This document shows positions 24,201-44,165 of a stretch of 64,000 bases of DNA, piece after piece. The translations under genes and the position numbers were made by a program. Where the stretch lies: contig NC_135069.1 in assembly GCF_051401765.1 (NCBI RefSeq), positions 10,890,501 through 10,954,500 on the forward strand, read 5' to 3'. Source of the stretch: Calliopsis andreniformis (lineage: Eukaryota; Arthropoda; Insecta; Hymenoptera; Andrenidae). Position 1 is the stretch's first letter, and the number at the start of each line of letters is the position of its first letter. The notes beneath the pieces were generated by a model that saw nothing but the letters and a program-made list of their open reading frames with translations, was not told the DNA's origin and searched no databases.

Positions 24201-27200
24201 ACATTCAAGGCTTCGTTGGATTCATTGCAATTTCTTACAATTACCATTGGCAAATAAAGAAGTTAAATAAAATTTTTATTTCGATTAATACGTATGCAAA
24301 TGGCTATGTGAGGAAAAAAGAATTGAATGGCTAATTTTATTTTTTTGTAGTTTATTGTTATTTTGAATCATAGACCACATCTCACTCGAGGTTTCACTGT
24401 ACCCTTGTTAGCATACCACCAAATAACCCAAAATAAAAGAGACTATGAATAATTAAGATCTAGTTAGTCGAAGTTCTACTGACTGTTATGCTGTTCTTGT
24501 AGTTCACAGTAGATAAAGTCAATGGTCAGACTAACAATGAGTGTTCCTCTTACTCTTACTCAATATACCCTTCAGTATCTCAAACTATACTTTCGTATAT
24601 TCATACTTTGCTACCATACAAACTTAATATTTCTGAAAACAGAACAAGATATTTACAAATCATATTATACATACACTACCAATTTATTTTATCATGTAGG
24701 ATTACTACATTTTTGCTATTAACACCGAGCCTGGAGGACTCTATATGTTCCAACTGTTCAGCAACAAGTGTCAAAAATTTTCCAGAGTTATCCTACATAC
24801 CAAACTAAAATTGTATTTGAAGCTTTGCTTCCGAGTTATTCATTGTTAAAAATATACCTAAGATGCGTCTGATGCGAAAACCTATTCTATTGCCGTCAAC
24901 TAGATCACACAAGACAGCAGCAGTAGAATAAGCCCCCAAATTGGACAGATTTTGCCCAACCTAGAAAAAGGCAGTAACTACAGAAAAATGTGAAATTGAG
25001 CTTCCTGCATCTCTAGATAATTTTGAACATTTTTCATCTTGTTTTAGTGCAAAACAGCGGCAAATATTTTTAATAGATACTGCGTTCCTTCATAGTTAGG
25101 CAGTATTTAAACTTACTAAATCCTGTTCAAAACGAAGCTTCAAATACAATTTGAAGATTCTTAATTCTTGCCCTATTTTGACATGTAGACTCACTAATTA
25201 AAATTCAACACCTGTTAAATATATATTTTTATGTTGTATTGATTGCTTATAATTTTATCTACCAGGCGGAGACTGCGATGATGGAGATGAATGCGAGAAA
25301 GTTCTACGCGAGCTTGAGAATATTGACGACGAGCTGGATGAAACAGGGATCATTTTCGTTACGACAGAAGATACTGGATTTGCAAAGAAACACGGAATTA
25401 AAAGCTTCCCTACCTTGGCTTTCTTTAGGAACAAGGAACCTTTGATTTTCAAAGGCGATCTTGAAGACGAAGATGAAGTACTTTCGTGGATCACGGATGA
25501 AAATACTCTCGAAATTCCTGGAAAAATTGAGGAAGTCAATGGCAAAATGTTGGAAAACATACTTGAAGAGAACGATTACATCGTTGTCTTCTTCTGTGAG
25601 TATTTGTTGCATAATTAATCGTTAGGTGCAAGAAAGTTTTTAGATAATTGATATTTATTGTCGACTGAAATGCTAAAGGTGAGATAAAAAATCATTTTTA
25701 AAGAGATGATTATCGTATAGATAGCTGAAAAATGAATTTTTACTCTTCACAATGTCTAAAATTATTTTCGTCTTCATTCTTGTACATCTTCAAAAATTAG
25801 TTTTCACATGACAATGACAATATTTATTGTAACAACGTAGAATCAAGTTTTAAAATACAGATGAAACAGTTTGATGAAGTCAAAAATATATTTTATATTA
25901 GCAATAAATAACTCACATCCTATTTTATTTTATTTACTTTTTTGTGAACAAAGTTAATATAATGACTGCATAAACCTGCAGTTGATATGATATTATTAAA
26001 TAAAGAACAGAGACTAAATAGATTACCTATAGATATCAAGTATCAAATTGTCAATCTAGTCGCTGCTATATTCTCCACTTTGCAACATTACTTTCTCATT
26101 TTCTTAATTTCTCAATATATAAATTATCCTCAAACAAAGATAGTCTTCCTTATGAGCTCATTTTTTGCTGCATATTTTTAACTTATAATGGGTAAATATT
26201 GCACCAAGAATAAACATCAGTCGTTTCTCTAGAGATTACTATTCTTACCATTAGTTTACTCCAATGTTTTTGGTTACAGATAAAGAAGGTGACAAGAAGA
26301 GTCACAAGATTCTGCAAGAGCTCGAAAACATTGACGACGAATGCGAAGAAAAGGACATCGATTTCGTGAAGATTTCAGACGAAGGAATTGAGAAAGAATA
26401 CGACCTTCCTGATCTGCCAGCTTTAGCGTTCTATAGACACAAATTCCGCCAGGTGTACAAAGGTGATATGATGCACGAAGAAGCCATTTTGGAATGGATT
26501 CTAGAGCTTCGCACCCAAACTCCAGACGTGATCGAAAGCGTGGACAGGAAGACGCTACAGGTGCTTATCAACGACGTCGAACACCTTGCTGTATTCTTTT
26601 GTAAGTTCACCTCCATGAGTCTAACGTCAAACGAAATCGAATATGTCATATTTTAATATATTTCCATCTTTAGCGTGCTAACAAAAAACGATTAAAAGAA
26701 ACTCATGATCATATTCCTTAACAGACGATGATAAATGCGAAGTTTGTCCAGAAATTCTTGAAGAACTAGAAACTATTGATGACGACACTGACAAACACGG
26801 TATTCAATTTGTTAAATCAAACGATGCAAAATTAGCTGCCGAAATCGGTGTGTTCTCATTTCCGGCTCTCGTTTATTACGAGACTGGCGTCCCCATCATG
26901 TACGACGGTAAGTCTCAAATGCTTCATTCTTGGTTTGTTCTATCGCGATCAAGACCTGCGTTCCCTTGGATAAAGCGTCTTTGTTTCCTCCCACCAGAAC
27001 TTGTTCACATATTTCTTAACTTCACACTATTCATCGGAAGAAACAAAGACTGTACGGATATCTATTTTACATTCCTTTCAGTAATGTTCCTTTCTACATT
27101 GTTCTTCTTTAGTCAAAAATTCGACCATGCTAAATTAACTTCAGAATTTATTGTGCAAACGGTTGACAAACCAGAACGAAACTCAGTGAATTAGTAAACT

Positions 27201-28794
27201 AACAAAGACTAGTTCCAAAGAAACACTTTCATTGCACCCAGAACATTATGCTATTTTCATTCGAAATTCATGTCACATACTTCAGACGTTTATATCATAC
27301 ATGCAAGTTTCATGTGTACAAACGTCTTCAAGAATATGTAAAATAGTAAGTTAAAAGGAAGAACAAGTGGCCACCTTTCCCAGAGGAACCTTGCCACCAA
27401 AAACCTGGCGCACCCCAAAAATCTAACACCCGAACTTCTTGGTACACCGAACAATTGAGCTGATCCTGATATGCGTGTGTGCCTTTTGTAGGTAATCTTA
27501 AGAACGAGGAGAGAGTTCTGGAATGGCTAATCGAACAGAAAAGTAAGGAGATTTCTAGGATGATGATTATTATTACTGGTGTACTGTTCTTTGTGACGTT
27601 AATCTCGGTCGTGACAATACCACCGGGCTACGAGTACACTACTCGCGCCGTGGTGATCACCCCGATCACTCTGCCACAATCGCGATCCCCGTGATCGTGT
27701 CTGAAACGAAAGAAAATCGAATCTCCCTTCTGGCTGAAATTTCTTTTCTTCGTAGTATTGCGTTAGAGTAGTAGTCGTTAAATTGCAATAGATTAAAAGA
27801 GGATCGGAGGTGAATGAAAAATCAAACGAAAGGTTGCTCGATTTCAAACACATGACAGAAAACTAGAAAAAGAAAGATCTCACAAAGCTCGGTGAAAAAC
27901 GTTCATGATTTAGCTTCTAATATGCGCGCGCAATATAGCTCTGGCTACTGACCCGTTCACATTGCATTTAAAACACACTATGCGAGCTTCCATTTTCTTT
28001 GGCTCTCTTTCTCTTTTTACGTCTTTATTTTTTATTTCTCTTTTTTCTTACTTTTTTACTATCACTACTCGCTATCATACAGCTACCTCAGTGCAATAAT
28101 AATACAATGCTCTATTGACAGTTCAAAGTATTTTTTCCGTCGGAATAGATACGGTGTTTCGATTTTAAATGATAATTCGGTGAGACGCGGAGACAGAATT
28201 CGGATCGCAGAGCGTATAGCTACTACAATTTTAACGAACTGGTGATTGATAAAGCTTCTTTTATTTGCGGCCGTCTTTTCAACTATTTTTGTGCTGCAAG
28301 ATCTTTCTTTGATCACGTTTCATGTTTAAGTAATGTCGCAAGCCTATTATTGAACACGAGCAAGATACAAAATGAGCATAGAAAACTGTTCCTTTAATTA
28401 TTTTCAAATCTCAAACTATTACTACTATCATTACTTATTATCGTTCTCACTTTCACTTTTCATTTTTCTGAACTTACGGTGGCTCGCGACAAAACGGTCC
28501 AAAATCTAACACAGATTTGGTAAATGTACAACTTGAAAAAAATATGCTAATATATTTTTTTCAACCGTACACAACGTACTACGAATATATACACATATCG
28601 AGGTTATCCATTTGAAAACGATATCGATAATAATTCGTTACTTGTTCATTGTGTCGTCAATAATACGTCCATTCGATAAAGTAAACGCATGCCACCCTTT
28701 CGACCGAGGCCGTATCGATCACAAAAAACGTAGGTACACGCTCTCTTTTCCGGTCGCGTTGAATGTTACCGATGACCCTGTTAATACGCAGGTA

Positions 28795-28844
<50 letters not shown>

Positions 28845-28868
28845 AATGATGATGAAGATGATGATGAC

Positions 28869-28916
<48 letters not shown>

Positions 28917-31900
28917 AATGACGACGACGACGACGACGACGACGATAATAATGATGATGATGATGATGACGACCACGATGACGATGACGATGAAGACGAT
29001 GACGATAACGGCGACGACGAAGACGATGACGATAGCAACGGTAATGATGATGATGATGACGACGACGATGACGACGACGATGATGATGAAGATGATGACG
29101 ACGACGATGACAACGATGACGACGACGACGAAGATGATGATGATAATGATAACAACGAAGAGAGAAATACGAATTTGAACAAAGCCCTGAAGAATATTCT
29201 GAACAAAGGTAAAGGTCCAACAACAACCCAGGAGGCCGAAGAGGAGTTCACGTGAGAAATCGAAGTGTGACGGGCTTTGTGTTGCGCGAAAGAAAAAACA
29301 AAGCAGTAATACCACGATGATATCCCCGCAGAAACAAAAGTAGAGATGTGTATACCAGTAGAACGATTCGGATTAATTAGTAAATAATCCAAATGAAACA
29401 TGGCTGTCCATTCACCACTCACGGTCGAGCTGAAGGCCGAAGGGCGTACCTGCATGACAATTAATCGTTTTTTCTTTGTTTTCCGACTTACAAAATGCAA
29501 TATACTCTGCCTGGCTCCCCCTCCTATTATCGTGGATCCCCTTCACCCCCCGCGTACCTCTAAAATTTTGAAACTCATCCTATTCTCACAGTTTGCATGC
29601 CAGCCATGTGACATCCCTCCCTCGATGGAGCTACGTAACCAACTTGTCATGATCCAAGAATGCTATTTATCATTTGACTCGTACATGTACATACGAACAT
29701 TCATCGATACGGCTTTTTTCGGTGATCACGATTCAACCTTCTCTTTTTTTCTTTTTTGTTTGATACGGAGGTAAGTAGAATTTGTATATGGCCGTTTCGT
29801 TTCCTTTCGATTTTGACCGAATGACAATACTGAAAACGGTACGTAGCTCCAAGAGATCTCGATCGCACTTTTACCCAAATAACAACGTTTTCTCCAAAGC
29901 GAGCCGATGGTTTCTGTCCGTAGTTGACAGCTGTCGTCTGCAGCGAGCTCCGAGTCGAAGAGAATCGGACTAGCCTCCGCTTGAAAAAGGGAGGAAGTAT
30001 CGGGAGGGGTTCGTTCGATATATCACATATATCGATATATAAAACGTATCAACAAATTGCGGTTTGCATAATTCCAATTAAAGTTTCAATTAAAGTTTAT
30101 TGAAGTATATGAAGACAAGTTGAATTAACTTAACTTAACTAGGATTTAGGAAAGGTAACTATTTATCATTACAATAATTTTTGTCTTACCTTCGACGAGA
30201 TACGATAAAGATTTCAGTGGAGGCTGGTCCACGCTAAAATGGCTACCCTAAAAGAGTCGTCGACTCGCCGTGAGATATTCTCGTCTATTAAAAACATGCA
30301 CGTTTGGCTTTTGCTACGCAATTGGAGTTGGAGTGAAACAATCTCTCTGCACTAGTAACGTCAAAATCTCACGAGTCAATATATCTTTGTCTTTTTCCTC
30401 TTTTCGAACTCAATGTTTCTCTTTTCTCTCTCCATCTGTTTCTTACTGTTTTTTCAATTTCTTTTTGTCTCTCTTAAAATCTCTTCATATATCTCTCTCT
30501 GTTTCTTTGTTTCCATCCATTATCCCCTCTACAATATCTCTCTTGTCTCTTTCACACTCTCTTTATTTTTTTTCTTTTTGATTTCGAACCGTCCGCACCT
30601 CCATTGACTCGTGAAAAGATGAATATCAATCAGCCGTAGGCTAGTCAACTCTGACTTTCAAATTTCTCTCTGTCTCTGTCTGAATCTCTCAATATCTGAC
30701 TCGTTGTATATTTGCTTACTGCAGGCGACGGCTGTTTCTACATCGGCATGGGAGGTAAAAGCGCGAAACCCAAGATTCCCTCCTATGAGCCCTACCAGTG
30801 CTGTCCTGCCAAGGTCGCTCACGGTACCAAGGTCGCCAAGGCCACGAAAGTCAGTCCGGTGAGCAAGGACAAGGGCAAAGTCTATGGCACTGAGAAGTCG
30901 GACAAGTTGGGACTGCCGGCCCTGAAGCCAATAAACAAGCTCACGGCGAAGGACAGCAGAAAGGCTGCGACGATATCATCAGGAGTTAGTAAAACCGGCA
31001 GCGACCAGAAGGCTAAGAGAGGATTCTTTGGAAGCGGTAAATATTTCACCTGGCTGTGGTAATTGCAGAGTTAAATCACTGCCCACGAACGACATGGGCC
31101 ACCAAAGGGAATCAATCCTTGGGGGACTCAACGAAGGATCTAAATGGAGCTAATCTCGGTTCCTCGTAACACATCGATTGGAAGATAATCATTAAACGTA
31201 AACTGTTGAACAAATCTTTTCCGATCATTTTTAAATCTAAAAAATATTGTCAACATAAGGAAGCCGAGTCTCTGTTAACCCCTCAACGCGGAATAATCGG
31301 CAGGGATTGTCAAAGGACTTGGAGCAAAGGCGTAGTCAATATATTTCAAGACACTGCAAATAGAGGCATGGTGAGCACTTTTCAGATATTCTTCAGAAAT
31401 CCCGCTGTATTAGTAACTGTTGCAAGAAAATGGCGTCAAGACACAGGTCAGTACCCCAGTTTATTGTCCTCTGCAGTAAAAGGGTCTGGGCTGAAGTAAC
31501 GCCTCGAAGAACGACGCTAAATTTCGACCAATTGAGTTTCTCTCGCATCTGGAGACGACTTTGGCATACAATGCTCCCGCGTTGAGAGGTTAATTAGAAA
31601 ATTTAGTGGAAGAATGAATAATGGTGACGAGTAATCGATGTACAGGTAGCGTGTTCACACGAGTGGGCAGTGGTTTAATCAGCATCGTAGGGAAGCCATA
31701 GAGGAATAGTTATAGAGCCAGTGACACCCAATGTCAAGAGGGGCTGGAAAAAAGATGAATAACAATTCGGCCGGCTTCGTAAAATCGTCTTCGTATCTCG
31801 AATACAGGTGTGTCTCGCGGTCCATGAAGAGAATCACACGCCACAAGTTCTGGATGAGCAAGACGATCCAAGACACGTGCTATGGAAACCGGTGGCTGGG

Positions 31901-34244: not shown

Positions 34245-37200
34245 TAAGAATACTTTATTTGTTGATTTCTGTACTTACTATATCGTTTTACCACTGAATG
34301 CCGATAATCCGTACAAAAACGACGTTTGTACAAATTCATTTCGCGTTGGCACTGCACTCGTGCCACGATCACCGAGATCTAGGCGCGGTAATTATTTTAC
34401 AATTATTGAATAAAACGTACCGCTATTAGCAACACCTAGGAATAAGATGTAGATTTTAAATATAAGGATATTTCGATAAAATTTGTTGGAAAGTACATAT
34501 TGGCAATATCACGAACGAGTTTGTTAAACGAAGAAACTTAATTATCGCGCTGTGTCTGTGATCAGAAATATCAGGCATGAATTATTATTGATCGTAAACG
34601 TTTGCGCACTTTTGCCGACATAAGCCGCCGAACGGTATCCTCGTTAATTGCATAAGAGCAACATGTACGATAATAAACTCGATAATAAATATGTTTCCTA
34701 GTATCAATTAGTATCCTTTGTACTTGCTTCGCCCATTACTGCTAATGGTAGACGTAGAATCCCCTTGTACATATTGCCATTTCATTTCACCAACCGCAAA
34801 AGTCGACAATAAAAGTCATGTTCCATAGTACTAGTCCACTAATAAAAATCACCTCCCATTATTGGCATACTTCAATGGCGTTGTTCAATACTGAATCAAG
34901 CTTATTAGAATTTGATTAGAGATGTACATTGGTATTTGTTGTCAGAAATCCCCTGCACTTAGAACAACACATCTTCCGACATTCAGATTACACAGCCATA
35001 CCGAAAAAAGAATATCAACAATCAAACGCTTTTACATAATTAAAATGACGAAGAGTATTCTCGAGATTCGCTCTTTCAATTCTAAGAGCGCAATATGTTT
35101 TCTACGATCTATATCGTAGCATCAGTAATGTATAGTTTACCTGCGAGCAGACAAATGACGATTCAAAGAAACGTTATAAACTTTTCCTTCCTGTTACTTG
35201 GATTACTGCACGATACACTTCGATAAACAGGGTAAGTTTTACTTAAAATCCAGAAATCTCCGTATGTTATTTTATATCAAGATCGAAATGTATAGCCATT
35301 CCAGATCATTGATGAATGAGTCTTATTTAATAAGTAGTACTAACAAACGTTTGTAACGATAAGCTTGATTAATACTTACTTGCAATGAACTTATGAGGTG
35401 ATATCTCATAAGAATGAAATGGATTCGAAGAAAGTTAAAATACATTCGAGCAACCTTATAATAACTTAGGTAATCTGCTCGATGAGAGCGAAGTTCTTGA
35501 CTGGATGGTGAAGCAGAAGACGGATGAAAGCATAGAAGAGATCGATCGTGACACCCTCACTAAGTATATCGAGACCAAAGAATTCCTGGCTGTTATTTTC
35601 TGTAAGACATAATTCACTATTTTGCTAAAATTATAACGCGACATTTGTAAGTTTGGTAAAGTTTCACGATTTGTTATTACCATTTTTTATATCGGTCAGT
35701 AATTATAAAAATGGACATGTATTCTTCATTCTGAGATATTTCTATTTAAGAAAGAAAGAACGCTTTTAAAGAATTACTATTATAATATAAATCTTTCATA
35801 TGGCTGCAAAATTTTACATATACTTTATAAAAATTATGACTTTTTATGCCTCGAATTATTTTTATTATTTTCAAAATCCATTTTGCACATAATAACTATT
35901 GACTCCTGACAAAAAATATTAAATTTAGTAAAATAAGATTTGCAAACAAACATATCTATTCACATTCTGTGGTGATAAATATTCTTATCAATTTTTCAAT
36001 TCTTCTTCCTGATTTCTTATAACATTTCTACTTTTTTTATTTTATAAAGTAAAGTTTAAATATACATACAAAATTAACAAAATTCTAGTCATGACACCCA
36101 TTGCTTCGTTTAATTTTTTTAACTTTATCATAATGCGAATTAATTAAATTCTTAAAATAAACATGAATAGTGCTCTACTTAAATAATACAATTACCGTTT
36201 TCATAATTACTGGCACGTATGTATCTGAAATTTCACTTAAATAATATCAAAATTAAACTAATGATAATTATTGAGATAAGTAATATCGATTGCGTAGCAA
36301 ATACCAACGATAAGCGTCTCATCAAATAATATCAAAATGAATTCTATAACCCTATCTAACTTTACATCTATTATTATATTTCTTCATTTACTCGTATACT
36401 ACGTAAAATTTCTTCTAATTATTACTATTAATTACGTCGTAAAATTCAATTCACCTCGTAATCCAATAACAATTGAGTGCAACATTTTGAGATTCATATG
36501 CTTCACCACATAAGGAATTATTAACCCATTACTACGAAGCGAAAAAAGAAATCTGACTTTCGTAGACAAGGAGGAAGATCCAGAAAGCCCTAGAGTGCTC
36601 AGGCACGTCGAGTTGATCGACGATGAGGCTGGAGAGTACGGCATAAAGATCTGCAGAATGAAAGATCGGCTAATGGCTAAGAAATACGGTTTCCGAAATC
36701 CGCCGGGCATCACGTATTTCCGTAAAGGCAAGAATATCAACTACGATGGGGACATCGATGACGAAGAAGAAATCCTCGATTGGTTAACTAACCCAGAGAA
36801 CATGGAGCTAACTGATCACATCGAACGCATCAATAAAAAGATGTTTCACAAGATACGACAGACGACTGACTATCTTGCTGTATTTTTCTGTGAGTAATGA
36901 ATCTAATAAAAAAATCTAGCATTCGGTATAGAAATAAATAAATTATAATAAAGTTATGTTTCGAGTAATCTTAATTTACGTTTGATTGAAAAACAATTCT
37001 GAACTTGCATTGCTTATGTAAATATTAACACATCGATGCAAGATAGAATTAGCGTATTCTTTACTCTAATTTTTCTATATTCATTATCCTAATTTTATGT
37101 ACTCTAAAGCACTAAAATCTAAATAATTCATTCCATTATGACACAGTTCTAGTAATGACATTTTCGATCTGTTTACTTATTATTATTATTGCGTCAGAAA

Positions 37201-40200
37201 TACTTTTAAATATTTCACAAAAATGAAGATTTAGGCATTCAAATTTTCGTAAACTAATGTAGTTATATTTTATAAGCAAAATGAAGTACATATTATTATT
37301 ACTTTATTCACGGGGAAAGTTGCCTTTTTAGCATGCAGTATTCAATAAAATTATACAAAAATAGCACAACAAAAACTACAATACAGTATACATACGTAAA
37401 GGGTGTAAAAAAGTAATGGTCAGAGCTTCTACTTTCAGGACTCTTACTTTCCTAACGAAATTGTATTTAAGACCTCGTTTAGAATTATTTATTTATTAAA
37501 ATTCGCGTTAAATATTTCGTGTTACATATTTCATGGGAATTTTAGGCATTTCTTCAACAATTAATAACTCGAATATAAAGCTTAGACACAGTTTCGTTTA
37601 TCTTCATTTTCGTCTTGTTTTATCACGTAAATTGCAGAATCAACCCTTACGTATAAAATCTTTAATAATAAATATTTGAAAGATTCAAATTTCATAAATA
37701 GAACATCGTACAAAACATAGAAACTAAAATAGATGCTGAAACATGACGAATGCAATGGCACGTATATGTTTAGACAGCAACGACTGCAAACAGTGTGGCA
37801 GGGTGTTGGCGGAAATTGAGCACATCGACGATGAAGCCGATGGAGCAGGAATAAAGTTTGTAAAAATCGACGACAAACAATTGGCCAAGCAGTATGGCGT
37901 CTTCGCATTACCCGCTATTTTGTTCTTTAAAATGTCTTCAAAAGAACCAGTCATTTATGCAGGTACCAAAACTATACTATACTCAAACAAAAATAATTTC
38001 ATTTTTAAATACATAAACAAAATTATATTGTACCATAACTGTACTATATAAGGACACATGGGTGGGACAAAGAAGAGGCAATCGACATCAGAGTTGCTGC
38101 ACGGATTCCCTTCTTAAGTATAGTGAAGTAATTGGAAGAGGAAAGAAGAAATAAGGGGTGTCCTATTGTATTATGTGGCTGAGGCCTTGCTCGAGTTTAG
38201 GGCTTACACCCAATCTATGGTCGAGTCAACGAGACGAGTCAGCAGATGTAAATAAATGCAGGGGTTTTTGTGAAAAATTTTGTGCTTCTTTGCTGACTCG
38301 TTTTATCAACCCGAGCATATACCAATAGGATACTCATTATTTCTTCCCTCACCTTTCAAGTTTCTCCACTATACCCAAGGAAAGAATTCGTGTGACAACT
38401 CAGGTCGGCACAACACGCATAACAGAGACAACTTTACTGCCTGTTCTCGTTGAACATAATATAGTTTCATTAGTTTGTCGTAATTCTAAAGATGCGAATA
38501 CACCAGCGTTCGCGAACTGTTCACGACCAGTATGGAAATTAAATTTCCTAGAAATCGTCTGCTCCCATATCTATTCACATACTGTTCTTAATATTCGCAG
38601 AAAGATTAAGTAAGGGTGATAAAAGTTTACGAACTGTTTGCAAATATTGTTTGTAAACCGTGTTCGCGAACTGTTCGCTGGTGTAGACCCAGCTTAATAC
38701 ACATCGTTACGTTCGCACTCTAATTAAATTACTTCAATATTAAAGGTGACCTATATGATGAAGAACAAATTCTACAATGGTTAATGACGCAGAAAGATCC
38801 CTCGGGAGAGGTAATCGAAGACTTAGAAGGAGAGGACCTTTTGAATTTAATAAGAGAATCAGACTCATTGGCAGTCTACTTCTGTAAGTCTCACAGTTCT
38901 ACAGGCGCGGGCAACTGCCAAGCAGGAATGTATAACTAGCCTGTTGCGTGGCATTATTATTACTTTCTATTCTATACTTTTTGACACTCCGTGATCCATT
39001 CCACTCTTTCTATTCATCAATCTCATATAAGTTTGGTTTTAGATATTATTTAAATATGAAAGTATTTTAGCCATATATCGTCCTTTTCTTTTAGTGGTAT
39101 TTATAATGAAATGAATTGTTCCAAAAAGTTGGCAATTTAATTTCTGTTGCCTCTTACAACAGCTCTATTTTAAAATGAGAGCGGATTTTCCTTATTCCTA
39201 TTTTCTTTGATCCTTTCATGCTACACTTGTTTGACTATTTGCCTTTACTTGCTGGAAAGAATAACTGCTAACCGCAGCCAGCAACTCGTTTGAGTATATT
39301 AATTCCTGCTCTGGAAGCAACGGTGTCGAGCTCAAACAATAAGTACGCGCGTTCTCGTATGGAACTAAGCTACATATGTACATATTCGTGATACGTTGTC
39401 TTGTCTGCGATTGCGCTTAATTCTCGAGCTTAATGCCGCAATGATTAACAAGATTTACTTTCTCGTTGTCCGTTGTCCTGTTTATCTCTCAATATATGTA
39501 TATACACGTTTCTTCATGATTGTCTATATTACCGAAGCTGTACACGTTGTCTGCTAATGCTGCAGGGAACAGAACGCTTTGTGACTTGTGTCAGGCAAAA
39601 AATCAGCGCAAGCAGACCCGCCACAAGCCGGACCGCAGGAACGTCGACCACGAGACGACCGAGGGAGTCGATGGTACACGTGAACACAGAAAGAAATTGA
39701 TTTTTCGACCCAGTTTTTCTTTACCGACACTTTAGAATATGTTCCAGATAGTTTGTCCAAAATTCATCTGTGTGTACACTTAGAACATAAGTCTCACATG
39801 TTTGCGACACGAACACCAATATGGATATTTTTCTGATATTTTTATAATTATGTTTGCTTTTTATGTGTACAAACTTGATCTCTAGCTTCTTTTGGTGTAG
39901 AAATATTTAGATCCAGTTTTAAATGCACCACACGTGTTGATAACGATACATAGAGCTATTTTTCATAAGAAGAAGAGGCTCACACTATTTTTAATGCAAT
40001 TACAAAGTTTAACACCCACATTCACAGACTTTTTTGCAACAGAAGACACATTACTCTCAATTTTTTACCACAAAGTTTTGTTGAGAAGCAGAGACACAAA
40101 TTATTTTTAATATTTACAATTACAGAAGTCAAGTGCCATTTTTAGAGACTCTTCCGCCAGAGAAGACACAATACTCCCAATTTTGATCCTAAATGATTTT

Positions 40201-43200
40201 TGTGGAAACTGTTTTTTCAGGTCAAGTGAAAAGTACCGAGGACATTATTTTTCTCGAATATGACACATCATTACACTCTTACACAGGAGTGCCTGCACGA
40301 TTAAAGAGCATGTGCCATAAAGCCAAGCAGCAGAACCATAGTGCCCTAGAATCCTTGCTGATGAGCATGCCGTATTCTTTGTTTTCCCACGTTTGTATTA
40401 TCGTGCACGTTCATGTACAGAACAAATTTCTTTCTAATCGTTTTATTTTTTAATAGAATTCGCTTTCTTAGGTAGGACAACAAAGTGCTTTCGTAGATCA
40501 TCATAATCCACGGATTTGAGCGCCTTAGTCCCTTTTATTTCATACCTCTTCTACCTTCACTGTGATAGACTGCTGTTTTTCAGATAGAAACTTTTTTTAA
40601 CTATCAGTGAATTTTATAACGATATAGTTTCTCTTTAGACGCCGTAGACTGCGACCAGTGCGTGGGCATTTTGGAGGAACTGGAGAACATTGACGATGAC
40701 TGCGATAGACATGGTATTACATTCATTAAAACACAAGTAAGTGTAAAAGTTGTTCACCAAATATAAATTGATGGTTGAAGAACAGTGGAAGTTGAGAAAC
40801 CATTTTCTGAGATATTTGATCCTAACGTGTAGTTCTGTGCATTTTTAAATATCTGGAACTTAGTCTCATTCCTAGTCAATTCACCTGTTTTTTGTATGAC
40901 TCCAATGATTATTTTGGCTCTGGAGTCTAGATATAGTTTCGAGGTATTTGAAAATGATTAATTTTAGACTTGTACTATTCTTCTACTCATCGATTCTGTT
41001 AGAAATTTGTTTTGCCCTCTAGATATTGTGCTATATGCAACTTTCTATATTTTATACATTTTCGCAAAACCATATGGATTCTACCCTTTTTTGCATATTA
41101 AATTACAACTCACTGATTCTTCGTTTCTTAGGACTTCAACGTCGCAGAAGATTATGGGGTCACTGACTTTCCTGTATTAATATATTTCGAGAAACAAATA
41201 CCCAATGTGTTTGAAGGTTGGTGACATCCTTAACAGTTTAACAAAATATGCTGTCAGTAGGCATTTCTCGTAAGAAAACATTTTATATATTCTTGTGTGT
41301 AGGTGATCTGTCGGTAGAGGAGGAAGTGCTGCAATGGCTAATAACTCAAAGAACCGAGGATCGAATCGAGTTGATAACCAGAGTGATGTTGGAGACATCG
41401 GTAGAAGAAACCCAATACCTTGCTGTTTACTTCTGTAAGATACAGATTTTCTATATTGCGAACGTTCGTTTAAATGTATATAAAGAAAAATAGAATCTTG
41501 TTTTATATCGTAGACAAGCAAAATTGTCACATATGTGACGAAATTTTGGAAGGATTGGAAAGAATTGATGATGAGTGCGACGTATTTGGCATCCATTTGG
41601 TCAAAATACAAGATCCTCAACTGGCGAAGCGTTACTCGATCAAAACGTTCCCTGCTCTCGTTTACTTCAGAAACGGCAATCCCCTCTTATTTGAAGGTAT
41701 GCGTTAAATTTTTGTCCACAGAACATTGAAGATCGCTTTTAACCCTCAATCAAAGATTGCAGACTATTTCTACCAGCATTTCTAAACTTTAAAGTTTATG
41801 TAAGGTAATGTATAATACATAATAAGTAGGTATATTTCTACAATAAAGATTGGTAAAAAGAAAGTAAGGAAGAAAGAATCTGAAAAATTCTACGAGGTTT
41901 TTGGTACACTATGTGTACTACAACTTCTACACATAGTACTATTCCAAAAGCGATTTCCACAACTATGCTTTCCCTTTATTAGAAGACTATTGTCGACTGT
42001 AGAGGACAATCTGTGCAAAATACACTGATCTCGAATGTGTTATACTCTCAAAAGATATTATTTAGTCTCATTTCTCTAACAAGCTTGACCAAACTCGGTT
42101 GTTCAAATCCAAAAAACGTTACTGTCTTCCAGTCAAAAATGAGAGCTAGTCCTAGTCGATGATTTTCAATCCAAGTAATACAATACTAATTTCATTCATT
42201 TTATTTGTTCCATCTAATAGGTGATCTACAAAACGAAGAGTCAGTCCTTGAGTGGTTGATCGACGACGATAATCGAGAGTTAGCAGACGAAATCGAATCG
42301 GTTAATAATAGAATGTTGGAGAGACTTCTCGACCAATCTCCATTCCTAGCTGTCTTTTTCTGTGGGTCTTCAGATATTAGTACACTTTAATTAGAGTTCT
42401 GAATTGTATAAGAATTACTAAAGGTCGCCGTTTTATATCATATAGATGATGAAGACTGTCCTGAATGCGACGAGATCATGGAAGCTTTGGAGAAGATCGA
42501 CGGTGAGGCAGACTTATTTGGCATCGACTTCGTAAAGGTTTCTAGCCCCGAAGCTGCTGAAAAATTCGAAATTCATAATATCCCGTCGCTCGTTTATTTC
42601 CGCAAAAAGACACCGTTAATTTACGATGGCGATCTAACCCAAGAAGATAAAATTCTTCAGTGGCTTACTTCTCAAGACGTCTTTGAAATAAAGAACGAGA
42701 TCGAGGAAGTCAACAAGAAGATGTTGGACAAGTTGCTGGACGAGAATGAATTCCTGGCAGTCTTCTTTTGTAAATAATTGTTAAACTAACCTCAAATTAT
42801 CGATATAATTGTAATAAATAAATTTGAACTAATTTAATCAAATATTTTTCAGATGAACATGACAGTAGAGAAAGCGAAGAAGTGCATGAAAAGTTGGAAA
42901 ATATTGATGGAGAAACAGACAATTTAGACATCACGTTCGTGAAAATGGCTGATCCAAGATACGCTAGAAAATGGGGTGTTACAAAGCTTCCTGCCATTGT
43001 CTACTTTCGGAAGAGGTTCCCAAGTATTTATCGAGGTAAGAGCTTCCTACTGCGAATAATTACTTTATACAGTGGATGATCAAATTATTATGAACACTTC
43101 GAAATTATCTCTTACATATTTGAAGTTTTAGCAAGAATAGAACTTCAAATGATAAATTTTCTTCTTACAAAACATATTGTTGTACATTAATATCACCTGA

Positions 43201-44165
43201 CAACAATTATAAAACCTCTGAAATTTTTTTAAAGATATACATGTGATGAGGGTTTGTACTAGAGTTAATAATTTGCTGATTATAATAACTTAAACAGAGA
43301 AAAATTCAATTTCAACTTGGAAAGTGTCTTAGGTTTCCTCTTAAAACTCATTTTACTCAACGTAAACCCGAAGGCGCCAGTTTAAGACGATGATTGGAAT
43401 TATGTATTCGATTTATGACAAAAGACCAGCTTGCATGGATATGCATGGATGGAGGGGTAGAGACACTGCATGTGTCATCTTATGCTTTCCAGCATTCATT
43501 TGTTTGAAAAATTAGTACATATATCTATAAGTTTGAGTTATACAGGTACTGAACGATAAAAGTTTGACTTACAGAGGTAAACTTCGACTTATAGAAGTTT
43601 AGTTATTCTAAATTCGAGTTCTAGGGGTAAAAAGTCCACCTAAATGTGTGGTAAATAATTCGAGTTAAAGTAAGTTTCATTTCAATTTACAGAGGTTTTT
43701 ACAGCGGAACGAAAGGAAGTGAACAAAACTTTCATCTTGTAGAGGTTTTCGAATTAAAAGGGTTTTGAGTTCTCGAGGTTCGACTGTAAATAAATTGTCT
43801 ATCTACAATGTTAAAAACAAAAAGAAGGATACATATATATCACTATTATTTAAATCATATCACCAAAAACATAAAGCCTTCTATCTATTCCTAATAATTT
43901 GATCGATTACTGTAATCAAAATCATAGTCTCCCCAGATTATCTACATTAAAACCAATGATTTGTTTTCGGGTAACAGGTGACGTACACAAGGAACAAGAT
44001 GTGCTAGAATGGTTACGTAAGAACAGGTACCGTCAACCAGAGCTGAATATCTACATGTACATGCTGATCGCCATAACCGTCCTATTTGCTATGTATACTG
44101 GTTTCCTTTTGTCATGCTTCCGGTCGGAGCCAACGGCGTCCACGACGCATACAAAGCAAGCGTGA
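10036..44165 (+). CDS. Giant gene of 15 tandem thioredoxin-fold modules (calsequestrin/PDI-like), long membrane-anchored form
   Basis: About 25 exons give roughly 1620 residues, with the 5' end not found. Each module reads: an acidic helix plus strand ending AVLF, Tyr at the exon junction, CxxC or its relic, a helix (ELENIDDECD), strand GIxFVKIDD, AKEYGI, then a cis-Pro-type strand (PTLVYFExxIPxxYEG), and an acidic helix (DLxxEDxVLEWL). This is the thioredoxin/PDI order. Junctions are all phase 1 except one extra phase-0 intron in module 12, so modules can be skipped or swapped without loss of frame. The end is a single transmembrane segment with a short tail. ER/secretory location and redox or Ca2+-linked roles are inferred. 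From memory and unverified, the Drosophila locus l(2)01289 may be related. Exons inside are listed module by module. Confidence 0.85.
12119..12764. repeat. Two direct copies of a ~243-bp MITE (family B)
   Basis: Copies at about 12119-12363 and 12521-12764 start TAAGGTAAxTGTCCCA and end with its reverse complement (TGGGACATTTACCTTA; decayed in the second copy). They share long interior blocks such as CATAAAATAGTATATTCAG and CATCTTAAGTGTC. Both lie in the intron of module 1. Confidence 0.75.
15297..19660 (+). other. Intron between modules 1 and 2
   Basis: AT-rich, with one MITE (15891-16253). No additional thioredoxin half-module was found in either strand. Confidence 0.55.
15891..16253. repeat. 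Foldback MITE, family A
   Basis: Begins ACAGAGCGCTCGATGACAGG after TA and ends ACACCTGTTGTTAACTACTCTGT before AT. The inner blocks GGAGTGATTCTACATGCTAA and the paired GTCTGAC..GTCAGAC arms match the copies at 500-870 and 44713-45058. Confidence 0.75.
19661..20442 (+). CDS. Thioredoxin module 2 (exons 19661-19843 and 20299-20442)
   Basis: First exon 183 nt with KPDCKKC at the active-site position and LPVLVYYRHQIPIIYE. It ends in C before GTAAGC, so with the next exon (starting AC) the junction codon becomes His instead of the usual Gly. Second exon 144 nt: ELSREEDVLEWL, then IEDVTSKTL and LVVLF before GTACGT. Confidence 0.85.
20513..21145 (+). CDS. Thioredoxin module 3 (exons 20513-20695 and 21014-21145), CxxC lost
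   Basis: 183-nt and 132-nt phase-1 exons. The active-site position reads DHGDEDS, with no cysteine pair. IDDDCDKHGIQFVKIDDEKS and VPTIVYFEKQIPNVYDG are well kept. The second exon starts GDVENEDEILEWL. An (AAAAT)n run sits in the intron just before the second exon. Confidence 0.85.
20970..21000. repeat. (AAAAT)n microsatellite
   Basis: Six or so perfect AAAAT units in the intron, 13 bases upstream of the exon at 21014. Confidence 0.8.
21231..21545 (+). CDS. Thioredoxin module 4 (single 315-nt exon), CxxC lost
   Basis: Whole module in one exon with no intron at the mid-module Gly. Active-site position reads DNNDRKSQ. IDDECDQLGVIFVKIDN, MPGMLYFEKGIPTLYEG and NLEDEEKVLKWL follow in order, ending VAVLF before GTCAGT. 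The phase is 1-1 like its neighbours. Confidence 0.88.
21644..23157 (+). CDS. Thioredoxin module 5 (exons 21644-21826 and 23026-23157), CxxC lost
   Basis: 183- and 132-nt exons. Active-site position DKDQKKSQ. IDDDCDQHNIAFVKIHDPEE and FPTLVLFERRIPHVYEG, then GDLMNEDQLLGWLLHQKK and LAVLF. The intron contains a piggyBac-type MITE (21997-22335). Confidence 0.87.
21997..22335. repeat. piggyBac-type MITE with TTAA ends
   Basis: TTAACCGTTTGAGTGCCA at the left is matched exactly inverted by TGGCACTCAAACGGTTAA at the right. The TTAA at both ends fits the piggyBac target. About 340 bp, no transposase. Lies in the module-5 intron. Confidence 0.85.
23276..23590 (+). CDS. Thioredoxin module 6 (single 315-nt exon), CxxC lost
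   Basis: Active-site position DKDDKQD, then IDDELEKEGIVIIRMDN, LPTLVYFENKIPAIYEG and DLLNEDEVLEWL, ending VVAFF. The last base is A, so the junction codon with the next exon becomes Ser in place of the usual Tyr. Confidence 0.88.
24043..24402. repeat. pogo-like MITE
   Basis: Inverted ends TACGGTAGGACCTCGATTAA and (reverse complement of the right end) TACAGTGAAACCTCGAGTGA, about 360 bp apart. The CAGT-AACCTCG pattern is typical of pogo/Tigger terminal repeats. No transposase frame inside. Confidence 0.6.
24745..25222. repeat. Decayed foldback MITE, family A
   Basis: Carries the diagnostic order GAAGCTTTGCTTCCGAGTTA, a GTCTGA..CTATTCTATTG arm with its inverse CAGTAGAATAAGC, and a right end ACATGTAGACTCAC..AACACCTGTT. 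Longer than other copies, with insertions in the centre. Confidence 0.5.
25266..25595 (+). CDS. Thioredoxin module 7 (single 330-nt exon), modified cysteine pair
   Basis: The active-site region reads GDCDDGDEC: two cysteines five residues apart instead of CxxC. Then IDDELDETGIIFVTTED, FPTLAFFRNKEPLIFKG and DLEDEDEVLSWI, ending IVVFF before GTGAGT. Acceptor AG at 25264-25265 follows a T-rich tract. Confidence 0.87.
26280..26600 (+). CDS. Thioredoxin module 8 (single 321-nt exon), CxxC lost
   Basis: Active-site position KEGDKKSH. IDDECEEKDIDFVKISD, LPALAFYRHKFRQVYKG and DMMHEEAILEWILELR follow, ending LAVFF before GTAAGT. Confidence 0.87.
26725..26907 (+). CDS. Thioredoxin module 9, first half (183-nt exon, CEVC)
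   Basis: DDKCEVC at the active-site position, IDDDTDKHGIQFVKSND and FPALVYYETGVPIMYDG before GTAAGT. This is the splice hub of the locus. Its phase-1 donor can join in frame to the membrane tail at 27492, the Asp tail at 28792, the Lys-rich exon at 30725, or the ordinary second half at 35470. Confidence 0.87.
27492..27694 (+). CDS. Alternative last exon: half-module plus transmembrane tail
   Basis: Phase-1 acceptor (TTTTGTAG|GT) as in other second-half exons. Encodes GNLKNEERVLEWLIEQK, completing the thioredoxin fold, then one hydrophobic span (MMIIITGVLFFVTLISVVTI) and about 28 residues ending at TGA 27692-27694. Spliced to the module-9 first half it would give a shorter form anchored by its C-terminus. 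No clear AATAAA was noted close by. Confidence 0.75.
27695..28791 (+). other. Probable 3' UTR / intron between two alternative last exons
   Basis: AT-rich with runs of T. No further coding exon recognised. It may hold the 3' UTR of the membrane-tail form. Confidence 0.4.
28792..29255 (+). CDS. Alternative last exon: polyaspartate (calsequestrin-like) tail
   Basis: The frame entered by a phase-1 acceptor (ACGCAG|GT AAT GAT..) gives Gly-Asn, then 121 codons that with the Asn include about 100 Asp; the rest are mostly Asn, Glu, Gly, Ser or His. A non-repetitive tail (NLNKALKNILNKGKG.. EAEEEF) follows, to TGA 29253-29255. Upstream the frame is closed by a TAA at 28782, so splicing is required. 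Many interruptions are GAT to GAC, silent in this frame. Calsequestrin also ends in an Asp-rich Ca2+-binding tail after thioredoxin folds; a similar role here is inferred. The alternative is a non-coding GAT microsatellite. Confidence 0.6.
28797..29150. repeat. Imperfect (GAT/GAC)n trinucleotide tract
   Basis: Pure GAT runs at first, then mixed GAT/GAC/GAA/AAT/AAC. Overlaps the Asp-tail exon. All other frames are open too and would give Met/Thr, Ser or Val/Ile repeats. Confidence 0.9.
29256..30724 (+). other. Probable 3' UTR / intron between Asp-tail and Lys-rich exons
   Basis: Pyrimidine-rich CT tracts between about 30370 and 30710 lead up to the acceptor at 30724. No further coding exon recognised. 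Confidence 0.4.
30725..31062 (+). CDS. Alternative exon: Lys-rich basic tail
   Basis: Phase-1 acceptor (CTTACTGCAG|GC) after a long CT-rich tract. Encodes GDGCFYIGMGG, then about 90 residues rich in Lys, Ala, Ser and Thr (KVAKATKVSPVSKDKGK), to TAA 31060-31062. GC-rich, codon-like composition. A GTAAAT donor at 31037 would end it in phase 1 after FFGSG, so it might instead be internal and continue to a short exon at 31646 or beyond. Function not recognised; the basic tail contrasts with the Asp tail next door. Confidence 0.6.
31646..31701 (+). CDS. Speculative short last exon after the Lys-rich exon
   Basis: TACAG|GT acceptor in phase 1 gives GSVFTRVGSGLISIVGKP and a TAG. Joined to the donor at 31037 it would read FFGSGSVFTRVGSG. 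The polypyrimidine tract is poor, so this is only a possibility. Confidence 0.2.
34211..34246. repeat. (TTTA)n microsatellite
   Basis: About nine perfect TATT units. Confidence 0.9.
35470..35601 (+). CDS. Thioredoxin module 9, second half (132-nt exon)
   Basis: Starts GNLLDESEVLDWMVKQK, ends LAVIF before GTAAGA. Used when the long form reads past the three alternative tails, 8.6 kb downstream of the first half at 26725-26907. Confidence 0.82.
35602..36565 (+). other. Intron between modules 9 and 10
   Basis: Very AT-rich; nothing recognised. Confidence 0.6.
36566..36889 (+). CDS. Thioredoxin module 10 (single 324-nt exon), CxxC lost
   Basis: Active-site position KEEDPESP. The usual ENIDDE helix is varied (HVELIDDEAGEYGIKICRM). 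PPGITYFRKGKNINYDG and DIDDEEEILDWL follow, ending LAVFF before GTGAGT. Confidence 0.85.
37525..37650. repeat. Right-half fragment of foldback MITE family A
   Basis: TTTTAGGCATTTCTTCAACA.. CTTCATTTTCGTCTTGTTTT matches the right half of the 15891 and 44713 copies. No left half found. Confidence 0.45.
37774..38883 (+). CDS. Thioredoxin module 11 (exons 37774-37962 and 38746-38883, CKQC)
   Basis: First exon 189 nt with SNDCKQC, IDDEADGAGIKFVKIDDKQ and LPAILFFKMSSKEPVIYAG (two extra residues in the loop). Second exon 138 nt: GDLYDEEQILQWLMTQK, ending LAVYF. The intron carries two foldback MITEs. Confidence 0.85.
38081..38395. repeat. Foldback MITE with ~70-bp arms
   Basis: CACGGATTCCCTTCTTAAGT.. 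GAAATAAGGGGTGTCCTATT at the left is matched inverted by AATAGGATACTCATTATTTC.. GGAAAGAATTCGTG at the right. A central inner pair (GACGAGTCAGCA and TGCTGACTCGT) is also inverted. Confidence 0.75.
38497..38690. repeat. Short foldback MITE
   Basis: ACACCAGCGTTCGCGAACTG at the left and CGCGAACTGTTCGCTGGTGT at the right are inverted copies about 150 bp apart, with related GTTTACGAACTG and TTTGTAAAC blocks inside. Confidence 0.7.
39566..39735 (+). CDS. Candidate alternative exon with CDLC
   Basis: Phase-1 acceptor (AATGCTGCAG|GG). After the AVYF end of module 11 the junction codon becomes Trp: FW-NRTLCDLC, matching the thioredoxin pattern of aromatic residue then CxxC. It then turns basic (KNQRKQTRHKPDRRN) and has no thioredoxin helix or strand. 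It stops at TAG 39733-39735 or may splice at a phase-1 GTACAC donor (39674) to the exon at 40221. NRT is a possible N-glycosylation site. Confidence 0.4.
40221..40453 (+). CDS. Candidate alternative last exon (partner of 39566 exon)
   Basis: Strong acceptor (CTGTTTTTTCAG|GT) in phase 1 gives GQVKSTEDIIFLEYDTSLHS and about 60 more residues to a stop near 40453. No thioredoxin signature. The last ~20 residues look like non-coding sequence. It may be a tail of a rare form or chance. Confidence 0.3.
40639..41434 (+). CDS. Thioredoxin module 12 (exons 40639-40736, 41132-41216, 41303-41434; CDQC)
   Basis: AVDCDQC at the active site. The usual 183-nt first half is split by an extra phase-0 intron (98 + 85 nt = 183) between IKTQ and DFNVAEDYG. 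The third exon starts GDLSVEEEVLQWL and ends LAVYF. The total length matches the other modules exactly. Confidence 0.85.
41514..42361 (+). CDS. Thioredoxin module 13 (exons 41514-41696 and 42221-42361, CHIC)
   Basis: KQNCHIC, IDDECDVFGIHLVKIQDPQ, FPALVYFRNGNPLLFEG, then GDLQNEESVLEWLIDDD and LAVFF before GTGGGT. 183 and 141 nt, phase 1-1. Confidence 0.86.
42446..42769 (+). CDS. Thioredoxin module 14 (single 324-nt exon, CPEC)
   Basis: DEDCPEC, IDGEADLFGIDFVKVSS, IPSLVYFRKKTPLIYDG, DLTQEDKILQWL, then a charged helix and LAVFF before GTAAAT. Confidence 0.87.
42853..44165 (+). CDS. Thioredoxin module 15 and transmembrane C-terminus (exons 42853-43035 and 43978-44165)
   Basis: Active-site position EHDSRES, no cysteines. 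IDGETDNLDITFVKMADPR, LPAIVYFRKRFPSIYRG. The last exon starts GDVHKEQDVLEWLRKNRY, then a hydrophobic span (IYMYMLIAITVLFAMYTGFL) and a short Ser/Thr-rich tail to TGA 44163-44165. Topology by inference: modules in the ER lumen or outside, tail in the cytosol. Confidence 0.85.
43520..43795. repeat. pogo/Tigger-like remnant
   Basis: Ends GAGTTCTCGAGGTTCGACTG on the right, the usual pogo-type terminal pattern inverted. Interior has repeated GAGTTATACAGGT / GACTTACAGAGGT-like units. The left end is decayed. Intron of module 15. Confidence 0.4.

What the first reader, a model, noticed from the sequence alone, without database searches (positions are those of the whole stretch)
28792..29255. Polyaspartate alternative last exon: a calsequestrin-like tail on a multi-thioredoxin protein
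Seen: an acceptor in the locus's own phase leads into 122 codons with about 100 Asp, ending in a non-repetitive tail and stop. Known: calsequestrin is thioredoxin folds plus an Asp-rich C-terminus that binds Ca2+ at low affinity and high capacity. Inference: this form may be a Ca2+-storing ER/SR protein reached independently or by descent from the same ancestor.
Basis: partly seen in the sequence, partly recalled or inferred. Interest (0 to 1): 0.88.

Follow-up and report, generated by a model that had tools for sequence, protein, structure and literature searches.

The report
Acidic muscle-protein exon in bee hulk
A bee gene for a long chain of thioredoxin modules, described as muscle-specific in flies, carries an optional exon of about 100 aspartates that may let insects, which seem to lack calsequestrin, store calcium in another way.

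Summary
The gene is hulk (Drosophila l(2)01289/CG9432): the translations of all 25 exons of my 15-thioredoxin model are found exactly in a Calliopsis andreniformis hulk protein. The tract is best read as an internal cassette exon, 28792-29208. It follows a 51-base exon (27492-27542) that supplies the last helix of thioredoxin 9, and precedes a Lys-rich exon (30725-31062, CFYIG...PYQCCP...GKYFTWLW-stop). Eight of 14 fetched proteins with the Lys-rich exon have an acidic insert at this place; none of the eight is hymenopteran. In the tract 46 of 63 differences from GAT fall at codon position 3; none of 1600 neutral simulations reached that. No calsequestrin match appeared by sequence. By design it resembles calsequestrin: acidic tandem thioredoxin folds plus an Asp tract, in a gene described as striated-muscle-specific in Drosophila (PMC8331185), in a lineage reported to lack calsequestrin (PMC7582152). 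Convergent Ca2+ storage in the sarcoplasmic reticulum is the leading, untested explanation. No RNA or Ca2+-binding data were available.

The parts
28792..29208 (+). Exon D: polyaspartate cassette exon (417 bases, phase 1 at both ends); with the split codons it adds S-NDDDD...EERNTNLNKALKNILNK-G
   Evidence: position, phase and flanking residues (QK-S-N/D-D... and ...G-DGCFYIG) agree with Schistocerca, Phyllotreta and Tribolium
28795..29150 (+). (GAT)n tract inside exon D
   Evidence: TRF; codons
29209..29255 (+).
   Evidence: no counterpart in 8 of 8 relatives with an acidic insert (7 of these were found only through exon K)
26725..26907 (+). Exon A9: thioredoxin module 9 from after its second strand (CEVC site) to its last strand; common donor of the alternative continuations
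27492..27542 (+). Exon B9s: alternative last helix of thioredoxin 9 (GNLKNEERVLEWLIEQK)
   Evidence: NLKNEERVLEWLIEQ also in the Nomia (hulk X2) and Anthophora proteins; corresponds to helix 980-992 in the model of the Photinus protein; acceptor 3rd of 437
30725..31062 (+). Exon K: CFYIGMGGK...SYEPYQCCP, then a Lys-rich low-complexity stretch and GFFGSGKYFTWLW-stop; may also splice out at 31036|31037
   Evidence: 14 fetched relatives carry it; acceptor 1st of 437
35470..35601 (+). Exon B9: the helix-4 exon used in the long membrane form
   Evidence: found in P0001
10036..26600 (+). Twelve exons of thioredoxin modules 1-8 (A1 10036-10218 to AB8 26280-26600)
   Evidence: translation of each found in Calliopsis andreniformis hulk X3
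36566..43035 (+). Exons of thioredoxin modules 10-15 (AB10 to A15)
43978..44165 (+). Last exon of the long form: helix, single membrane-like segment, short tail, stop
   Evidence: no membrane predictor was run

Best explanation
Exon 28792-29208 is an optional internal exon of hulk, a gene for a chain of thioredoxin folds that probably lies in the ER/SR lumen. It is spliced after exon 27492-27542, which finishes thioredoxin 9, and before the Lys-rich exon 30725-31062. The product is either a soluble nine-thioredoxin protein with an Asp tract and a Lys-rich tail, or, if the Lys-rich exon splices on to 35470, the long membrane-anchored form with the same insert. Shown: gene identity, phases, place and acidity of the insert in relatives, codon bias. 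Inferred: the tract adds low-affinity, high-capacity Ca2+ sites to an already very acidic protein, so that splicing tunes Ca2+ storage in muscle. It would work like calsequestrin, reached independently from a PDI-like thioredoxin chain. I rate the exon structure at about 0.85 and the Ca2+-storage role at about 0.5.
For: Gene: best hits named hulk; translations of 25 of 25 exons found in P0001. Insert: 8 of 14 fetched proteins with exon K have 37-69 residues at this point, 7 of them with at least 16 D/E in some 20 residues, in cockroach, termites, locust and beetles (recalled from the genus names). Junction residues agree. Bias to Asp codons. Lumen: P0001 starts with a hydrophobic signal-like stretch (no predictor run). 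Acidity: modelled short form net charge -238 in 1236 residues, long form -223 in 1687. Fold: the Photinus relative models as nine thioredoxin folds with the last helix at 980-992, then a disordered tail; calsequestrin chains appear from rank 27 over about 340-380 columns, the length of three folds (E 7e-14 to 1.7e-13 at ranks 27-30). Muscle: 'striated muscle-specific gene' in Drosophila (PMC8331185, passages). [quoted passage not shown]
Against: No RNA reads or protein data. Middling splice scores for the cassette. Six of 14 proteins with exon K lack the acidic insert, including both hymenopterans, the moth and three beetles; the Photinus insert has only 14 D/E of 43. Each fetched protein stands for a 90% cluster, so other isoforms may be hidden. 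ERdj5, PDI and ERp44 rank above calsequestrin, whose whole-length superposition is loose (rmsd 15-18). Seven of 15 modules keep CxxC, so a redox or chaperone role is possible. CG9432 knockdown affects lipid droplets in S2 cells and the protein was reported on droplets (PMC5362240, passages), which is not a muscle role. Whether fly hulk has the exon was not tested. No KDEL-like ending at either stop.
Confidence: 0.57

Rival explanations
1. The acidic cassette is a coding exon, but its task is not Ca2+ storage: it is a disordered acidic linker that pairs with the Lys-rich tail, or with partners, to assemble or anchor the protein, or it belongs to a PDI-like chaperone.
For: The acidic stretch was seen only together with the Lys-rich exon (8 of 8; biased, since 7 of the 8 were found only through that exon); 7 of 15 modules keep CxxC; best structural matches are ERdj5 and PDI; CG9432 is described as a disulfide isomerase linked to lipid droplets (PMC5362240, passages).
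Against: Six of 14 proteins have the Lys-rich exon without the acidic one, so it does not need it; 8 of 15 modules lack CxxC; muscle expression in Drosophila.
Confidence: 0.27
2. One reading: alternative last exon, junction 26907|28792, stop at 29255.
For: The phase fits and the frame stays open to 29255. Most acidic relatives were found through exon K, so a form ending in the acidic stretch could have been missed.
Against: It would drop the last helix of thioredoxin 9; 8 of 8 relatives have that helix before the acidic stretch; no AATAAA between 29256 and 30724, only three ATTAAA; no hit of the first search, whose query held this tail, covers more than 87% of it (120 of 1164 listed).
Confidence: 0.08
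3. A non-coding GAT microsatellite in an intron, acidic only on paper.
For: It is a triplet repeat; splice scores are middling; the bee isoforms seen skip it.
Against: Strong codon-position-3 bias, 0 of 1600 neutral simulations (a simple model with single-codon copying only); same place, phases and similar flanking residues as acidic inserts in relatives of three other insect orders.
Confidence: 0.08

Closest known systems
hulk (hlk; Drosophila l(2)01289/CG9432) and insect orthologs
   Same: Same gene: 15 thioredoxin modules, phase-1 exons, C-terminal membrane-like segment; translations of 25 of 25 modelled exons found in Calliopsis andreniformis hulk X3.
   Different: P0001 has two small inserts that my chain lacks. 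The polyaspartate exon is in no hymenopteran protein among the 132 fetched.
Calsequestrin (CASQ1/CASQ2)
   Same: Tandem thioredoxin folds followed by an Asp-rich stretch, very acidic, muscle (family features recalled); calsequestrin chains are among the fold matches.
   Different: Nine to fifteen folds instead of three; CxxC in 7 of 15 modules; the acidic stretch is a spliced cassette followed by a Lys-rich domain; a membrane-anchored form exists; no calsequestrin family listed by sequence.
PDI family (PDI, ERp44, PDIA4, ERdj5)
   Same: Best listed sequence and fold matches; CxxC in some modules.
   Different: Many more modules, 8 of 15 without CxxC, strong net negative charge, Asp tract and Lys-rich tail.
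Triadin/junctin Lys-rich lumenal regions (recalled)
   Same: Exon K has a Lys-rich low-complexity stretch (21 K+R against 7 D+E in 104 residues) beside an Asp tract.
   Different: Here both lie in one chain; no test of relatedness was made.

Membership tests
hulk (hlk) | Ordered 15-module thioredoxin chain with C-terminal membrane segment | tested here: met
   translations of 25 of 25 modelled exons found in P0001, named hulk isoform X3; split codons were left out of that test
hulk (hlk) | Alternative continuation with exon K (CFYIG...PYQCCP), seen in some orthologs | tested here: met
   30725-31062; 14 of 132 fetched proteins carry it
Calsequestrin | Sequence match to the calsequestrin family model | tested here: not met
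   none listed for 3 of 3 whole relatives (E up to 1, complete lists) or for the 15 window modules (E up to 10; 25 of 28 families shown); no positive control was run
Calsequestrin | Three tandem thioredoxin folds in the calsequestrin arrangement | tested here: inconclusive
   calsequestrin chains align over about 340-380 columns, TM by target 0.29-0.40, rmsd 15-18, but PDI-type chains rank higher; model pTM 0.46; the 50 VIA rows are mostly single domains or PDI-type chains
Calsequestrin | Asp-rich stretch after the last thioredoxin helix | tested here: met
   EQK-S-N-D... with 100 Asp; helix then acidic stretch in 8 relatives. Exon K follows, so it is not the very C-terminus
Calsequestrin | Low-affinity, high-capacity Ca2+ binding with Ca2+-driven polymerisation | not testable with these tools
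   needs purified protein
Calsequestrin | Location in the SR lumen of striated muscle | not testable with these tools
   Drosophila gene described as striated-muscle-specific (PMC8331185, passages); subcellular place unknown; signal-like N-terminus in P0001
Protein disulfide isomerase | CxxC active sites in the thioredoxin modules | tested here: inconclusive
   7 of 15 modules have CxxC at the usual place; activity unknown

The most novel reading that the evidence does not exclude
Insects that lost calsequestrin rebuilt it: hulk, a PDI-like chain of up to 15 acidic thioredoxin folds, is their muscle SR Ca2+-storage protein, and a spliced Asp cassette next to a Lys-rich cassette sets its capacity and assembly, combining calsequestrin-like and triadin-like parts in one gene.
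Probability: 0.35. Interest if true: 0.88.

Novelty: new variant of a known kind. Interest (0 to 1): 0.7.

Why it matters
Insects have striated muscle but were reported to have no calsequestrin (PMC7582152, passages), so what holds Ca2+ in their SR is an open question as far as I saw. hulk offers a named, muscle-expressed candidate with fly reagents already made (PMC8331185, passages), and a single exon whose removal would test the idea. It also shows how a coding exon that looks like a microsatellite may be missing from annotated proteins.

Tried and rejected
Direct junction 26907|28792 and stop 29255: replaced by the cassette model after relatives were read. Splice-site scoring from the locus's own introns gave only weak support for the cassette. 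The first coding exon was not found in the window; only thioredoxin modules matched. Calsequestrin among PDB sequence matches: not in the best 60 of 89 and 60 of 209, so its presence further down is not excluded. Calsequestrin is absent from the 50 VIA rows shown, which does not exclude it. Literature: hulk with Drosophila and sarcoplasmic reticulum (1 of 1 listed), with hlk and Drosophila (2 of 2), with thioredoxin (10 of 49), with calsequestrin (1 of 1), with hlk (5 of 5); CG9432 (3 of 3); 01289 with Drosophila and muscle (15 of 176); calsequestrin with Drosophila (25 of 210), with thioredoxin and insect (8 of 8), with Drosophila and sarcalumenin (10 of 11). No listed title or abstract start ties this gene to calsequestrin.

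Full report
What is in the sequence. From 28792 an open frame reads 121 codons with 100 Asp, 12 Asn, 5 Glu, 2 Gly, 1 His and 1 Ser, then 32 further codons and a stop ending at 29255. The acceptor AG is at 28790-28791 and the phase fits the other exons of the locus. An open GAT repeat alone would mean little, since two of the three forward frames of such a repeat are open. The differences do mean something: 46 of 63 departures from GAT are at codon position 3, 14 at position 1 and 3 at position 2. Collapsed to runs there are 34 events, 15 of them GAC, against 6 AAT and 1 GGT; 20 of the 34 touch position 3 only (p = 0.002 against one third). In 1600 simulations of a neutral repeat with the base composition of the window (four settings of 400), none reached 46 of 63 or 100 Asp codons. 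The simulation copies single codons only; larger duplications would widen the spread.

What the gene is. Chaining the thioredoxin-coding exons gives 15 modules in one frame, ending in a membrane-like segment and a short tail. The first protein search listed 120 of 1164 hits, many named hulk or hlk and many only 'uncharacterized', from bees, ants, wasps, sawflies, moths and butterflies, beetles, a cockroach and a termite. The translations of all 25 exons of my model, split codons left out, are found in the Calliopsis andreniformis protein P0001; P0001 has two small inserts that my chain lacks, and both can be placed in the window. So the window is that species or a near-identical one. The first coding exon, with the signal-like stretch, was not found in the window.

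Where the acidic exon belongs. Periplaneta hulk X3 reads ...VPIMYNG-NLKNEGKLLEWLIDQ-SEDDDD...-GKGCFYIGLGGK...YEPYQCCP.... The window holds each piece in the same order and phase: 26907 joins 27492-27542 (NLKNEERVLEWLIEQK), then 28792-29208 (S-NDDDD...NILNK), then 30725-31062 (G-DGCFYIGMGGK...SYEPYQCCP...GKYFTWLW-stop). Of 132 proteins fetched, 14 have the CFYIG exon: 2 from the first search (Periplaneta, Diatraea) and 12 from the two searches made with that exon: Habropoda, Eretmocerus, Cryptotermes, Leptinotarsa, Acanthoscelides, Tribolium, Asbolus, Zophobas, Phyllotreta, Photinus, Zootermopsis and Schistocerca. Eight of the 14 have an acidic insert between the helix exon and the CFYIG exon: Periplaneta 60 residues (43 D, 9 E), Cryptotermes 46, Zootermopsis 41, Schistocerca 37, Tribolium 44, Zophobas 60, Phyllotreta 69, Photinus 43 (only 10 D, 4 E). 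Six lack it: Habropoda, Eretmocerus, Diatraea, Leptinotarsa, Acanthoscelides, Asbolus. Five of 14 end with the CFYIG exon (one a partial record) and nine go on into the later modules. That 8 of 8 acidic proteins contain the CFYIG exon is partly built in, since 7 of the 8 were found only through it; that 8 of 8 have the helix exon before the acidic stretch is not built in. I saw no reads for any of them. The Nomia hulk X2 and Anthophora proteins use the same helix exon joined to the next module, which supports its donor at 27542|27543 in bees. Scores from the locus's own introns: acceptors 30725 and 27492 rank 1st and 3rd of 437, 35470 22nd, 28792 37th; donors 31037, 27543 and 29209 rank 42nd, 104th and 204th of 446. 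So the cassette's own sites are unremarkable, and the case rests on homology and codon bias. Annotation may have missed the exon because simple repeats are masked; that is inference.

What it works like. A model of the Photinus protein (36 sequences; mean pLDDT 70.6, pTM 0.46) shows nine thioredoxin folds. The last helix of the ninth is residues 980-992, from the counterpart of the 51-base exon, and 994-1160, the acidic and Lys-rich parts, is below pLDDT 50. Foldseek (50 of 1261 matches shown) ranks ERdj5, PDI, ERp57 and ERp44 first and calsequestrin from rank 27 (E 7e-14, 356 columns, TM by target 0.39, rmsd 15). So calsequestrin shares the fold and tandem layout but is not the nearest, and the whole-length superposition is loose. 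By sequence, no calsequestrin family was listed, and the listed PDB matches are PDI, PDIA4, PDIA6, ERp44, DnaJ C10, thioredoxins and a few designed or plant relatives. The chain is very acidic even without the cassette (net -223 in 1687 residues; each of the 15 modules negative, from -1 to -24). CxxC is kept in modules 1, 2, 9, 11, 12, 13 and 14.

Biology from print; in each paper I saw passages only. PMC8331185 calls l(2)01289/CG9432 a striated muscle-specific gene expressed from larva to adult and names it hulk. PMC7582152 found no calsequestrin in insects, with Drosophila, Apis and Manduca among the genomes listed, and reads this as a likely true loss because a spider has one; its discussion says Arthropoda lack the gene. 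PMC5362240 links CG9432 to lipid droplets and calls it a disulfide isomerase; PMC2777252 lists insertions at the gene that modify amyloid toxicity. PMC4930577 mentions calsequestrin-2-like proteins in a mite. The lipid-droplet result argues against a purely muscular role.

Conclusion. The anatomy is well supported (about 0.85). The mechanism, a splice-tuned, low-affinity, high-capacity Ca2+ store in insect muscle ER/SR, is the best single explanation but untested (about 0.5). Convergence on calsequestrin's design is likelier than descent, given the sequence tests. Insect orders are recalled from genus names.

Noticed in passing
27543-27694: If the donor after exon 27492-27542 is not used, the frame runs on into a strongly hydrophobic, membrane-like stretch (MMIIITGVLFFVTLISVV) and a stop, a possible short anchored form.
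   Followed up: no
17956-17991, 38883-38924 and 39568-39672: Alternative small inserts just before the active sites of thioredoxins 2 and 12 (PDTQRCAGTGSS; CKSHSSTGAGNCQA; NRTLCDLCQAK...) match inserts of the Calliopsis proteins P0001 and P0002; they add cysteines and may change redox behaviour.
   Followed up: partly
30725-31062: Exon K (CFYIGxGGK...YxPYQCCP...Lys-rich...GFFGxGKY) is shared by 14 fetched insect proteins; in the three scanned, no Pfam family at E up to 1 has its best stretch in it; its function is unknown.
   Followed up: partly
28657-29542, minus strand: The repeat is also open on the other strand (poly-His, poly-Ser and poly-Ile frames); nothing seen supports their use.
   Followed up: no
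52178-53818: Long open frame with AT-hook-like motifs (RKRGRPRK, RGRGRGRG; motif recalled), apparently a different gene.
   Followed up: no
61974-62712: A 216-base unit repeated 3.5 times in tandem.
   Followed up: no
P0015 (Anthophora plagiata), P0031 and P0121: Orthologs carry names such as 'Protein disulfide-isomerase A5' or 'Putative protein disulfide-isomerase C1F5.02', which may mislead.
   Followed up: no
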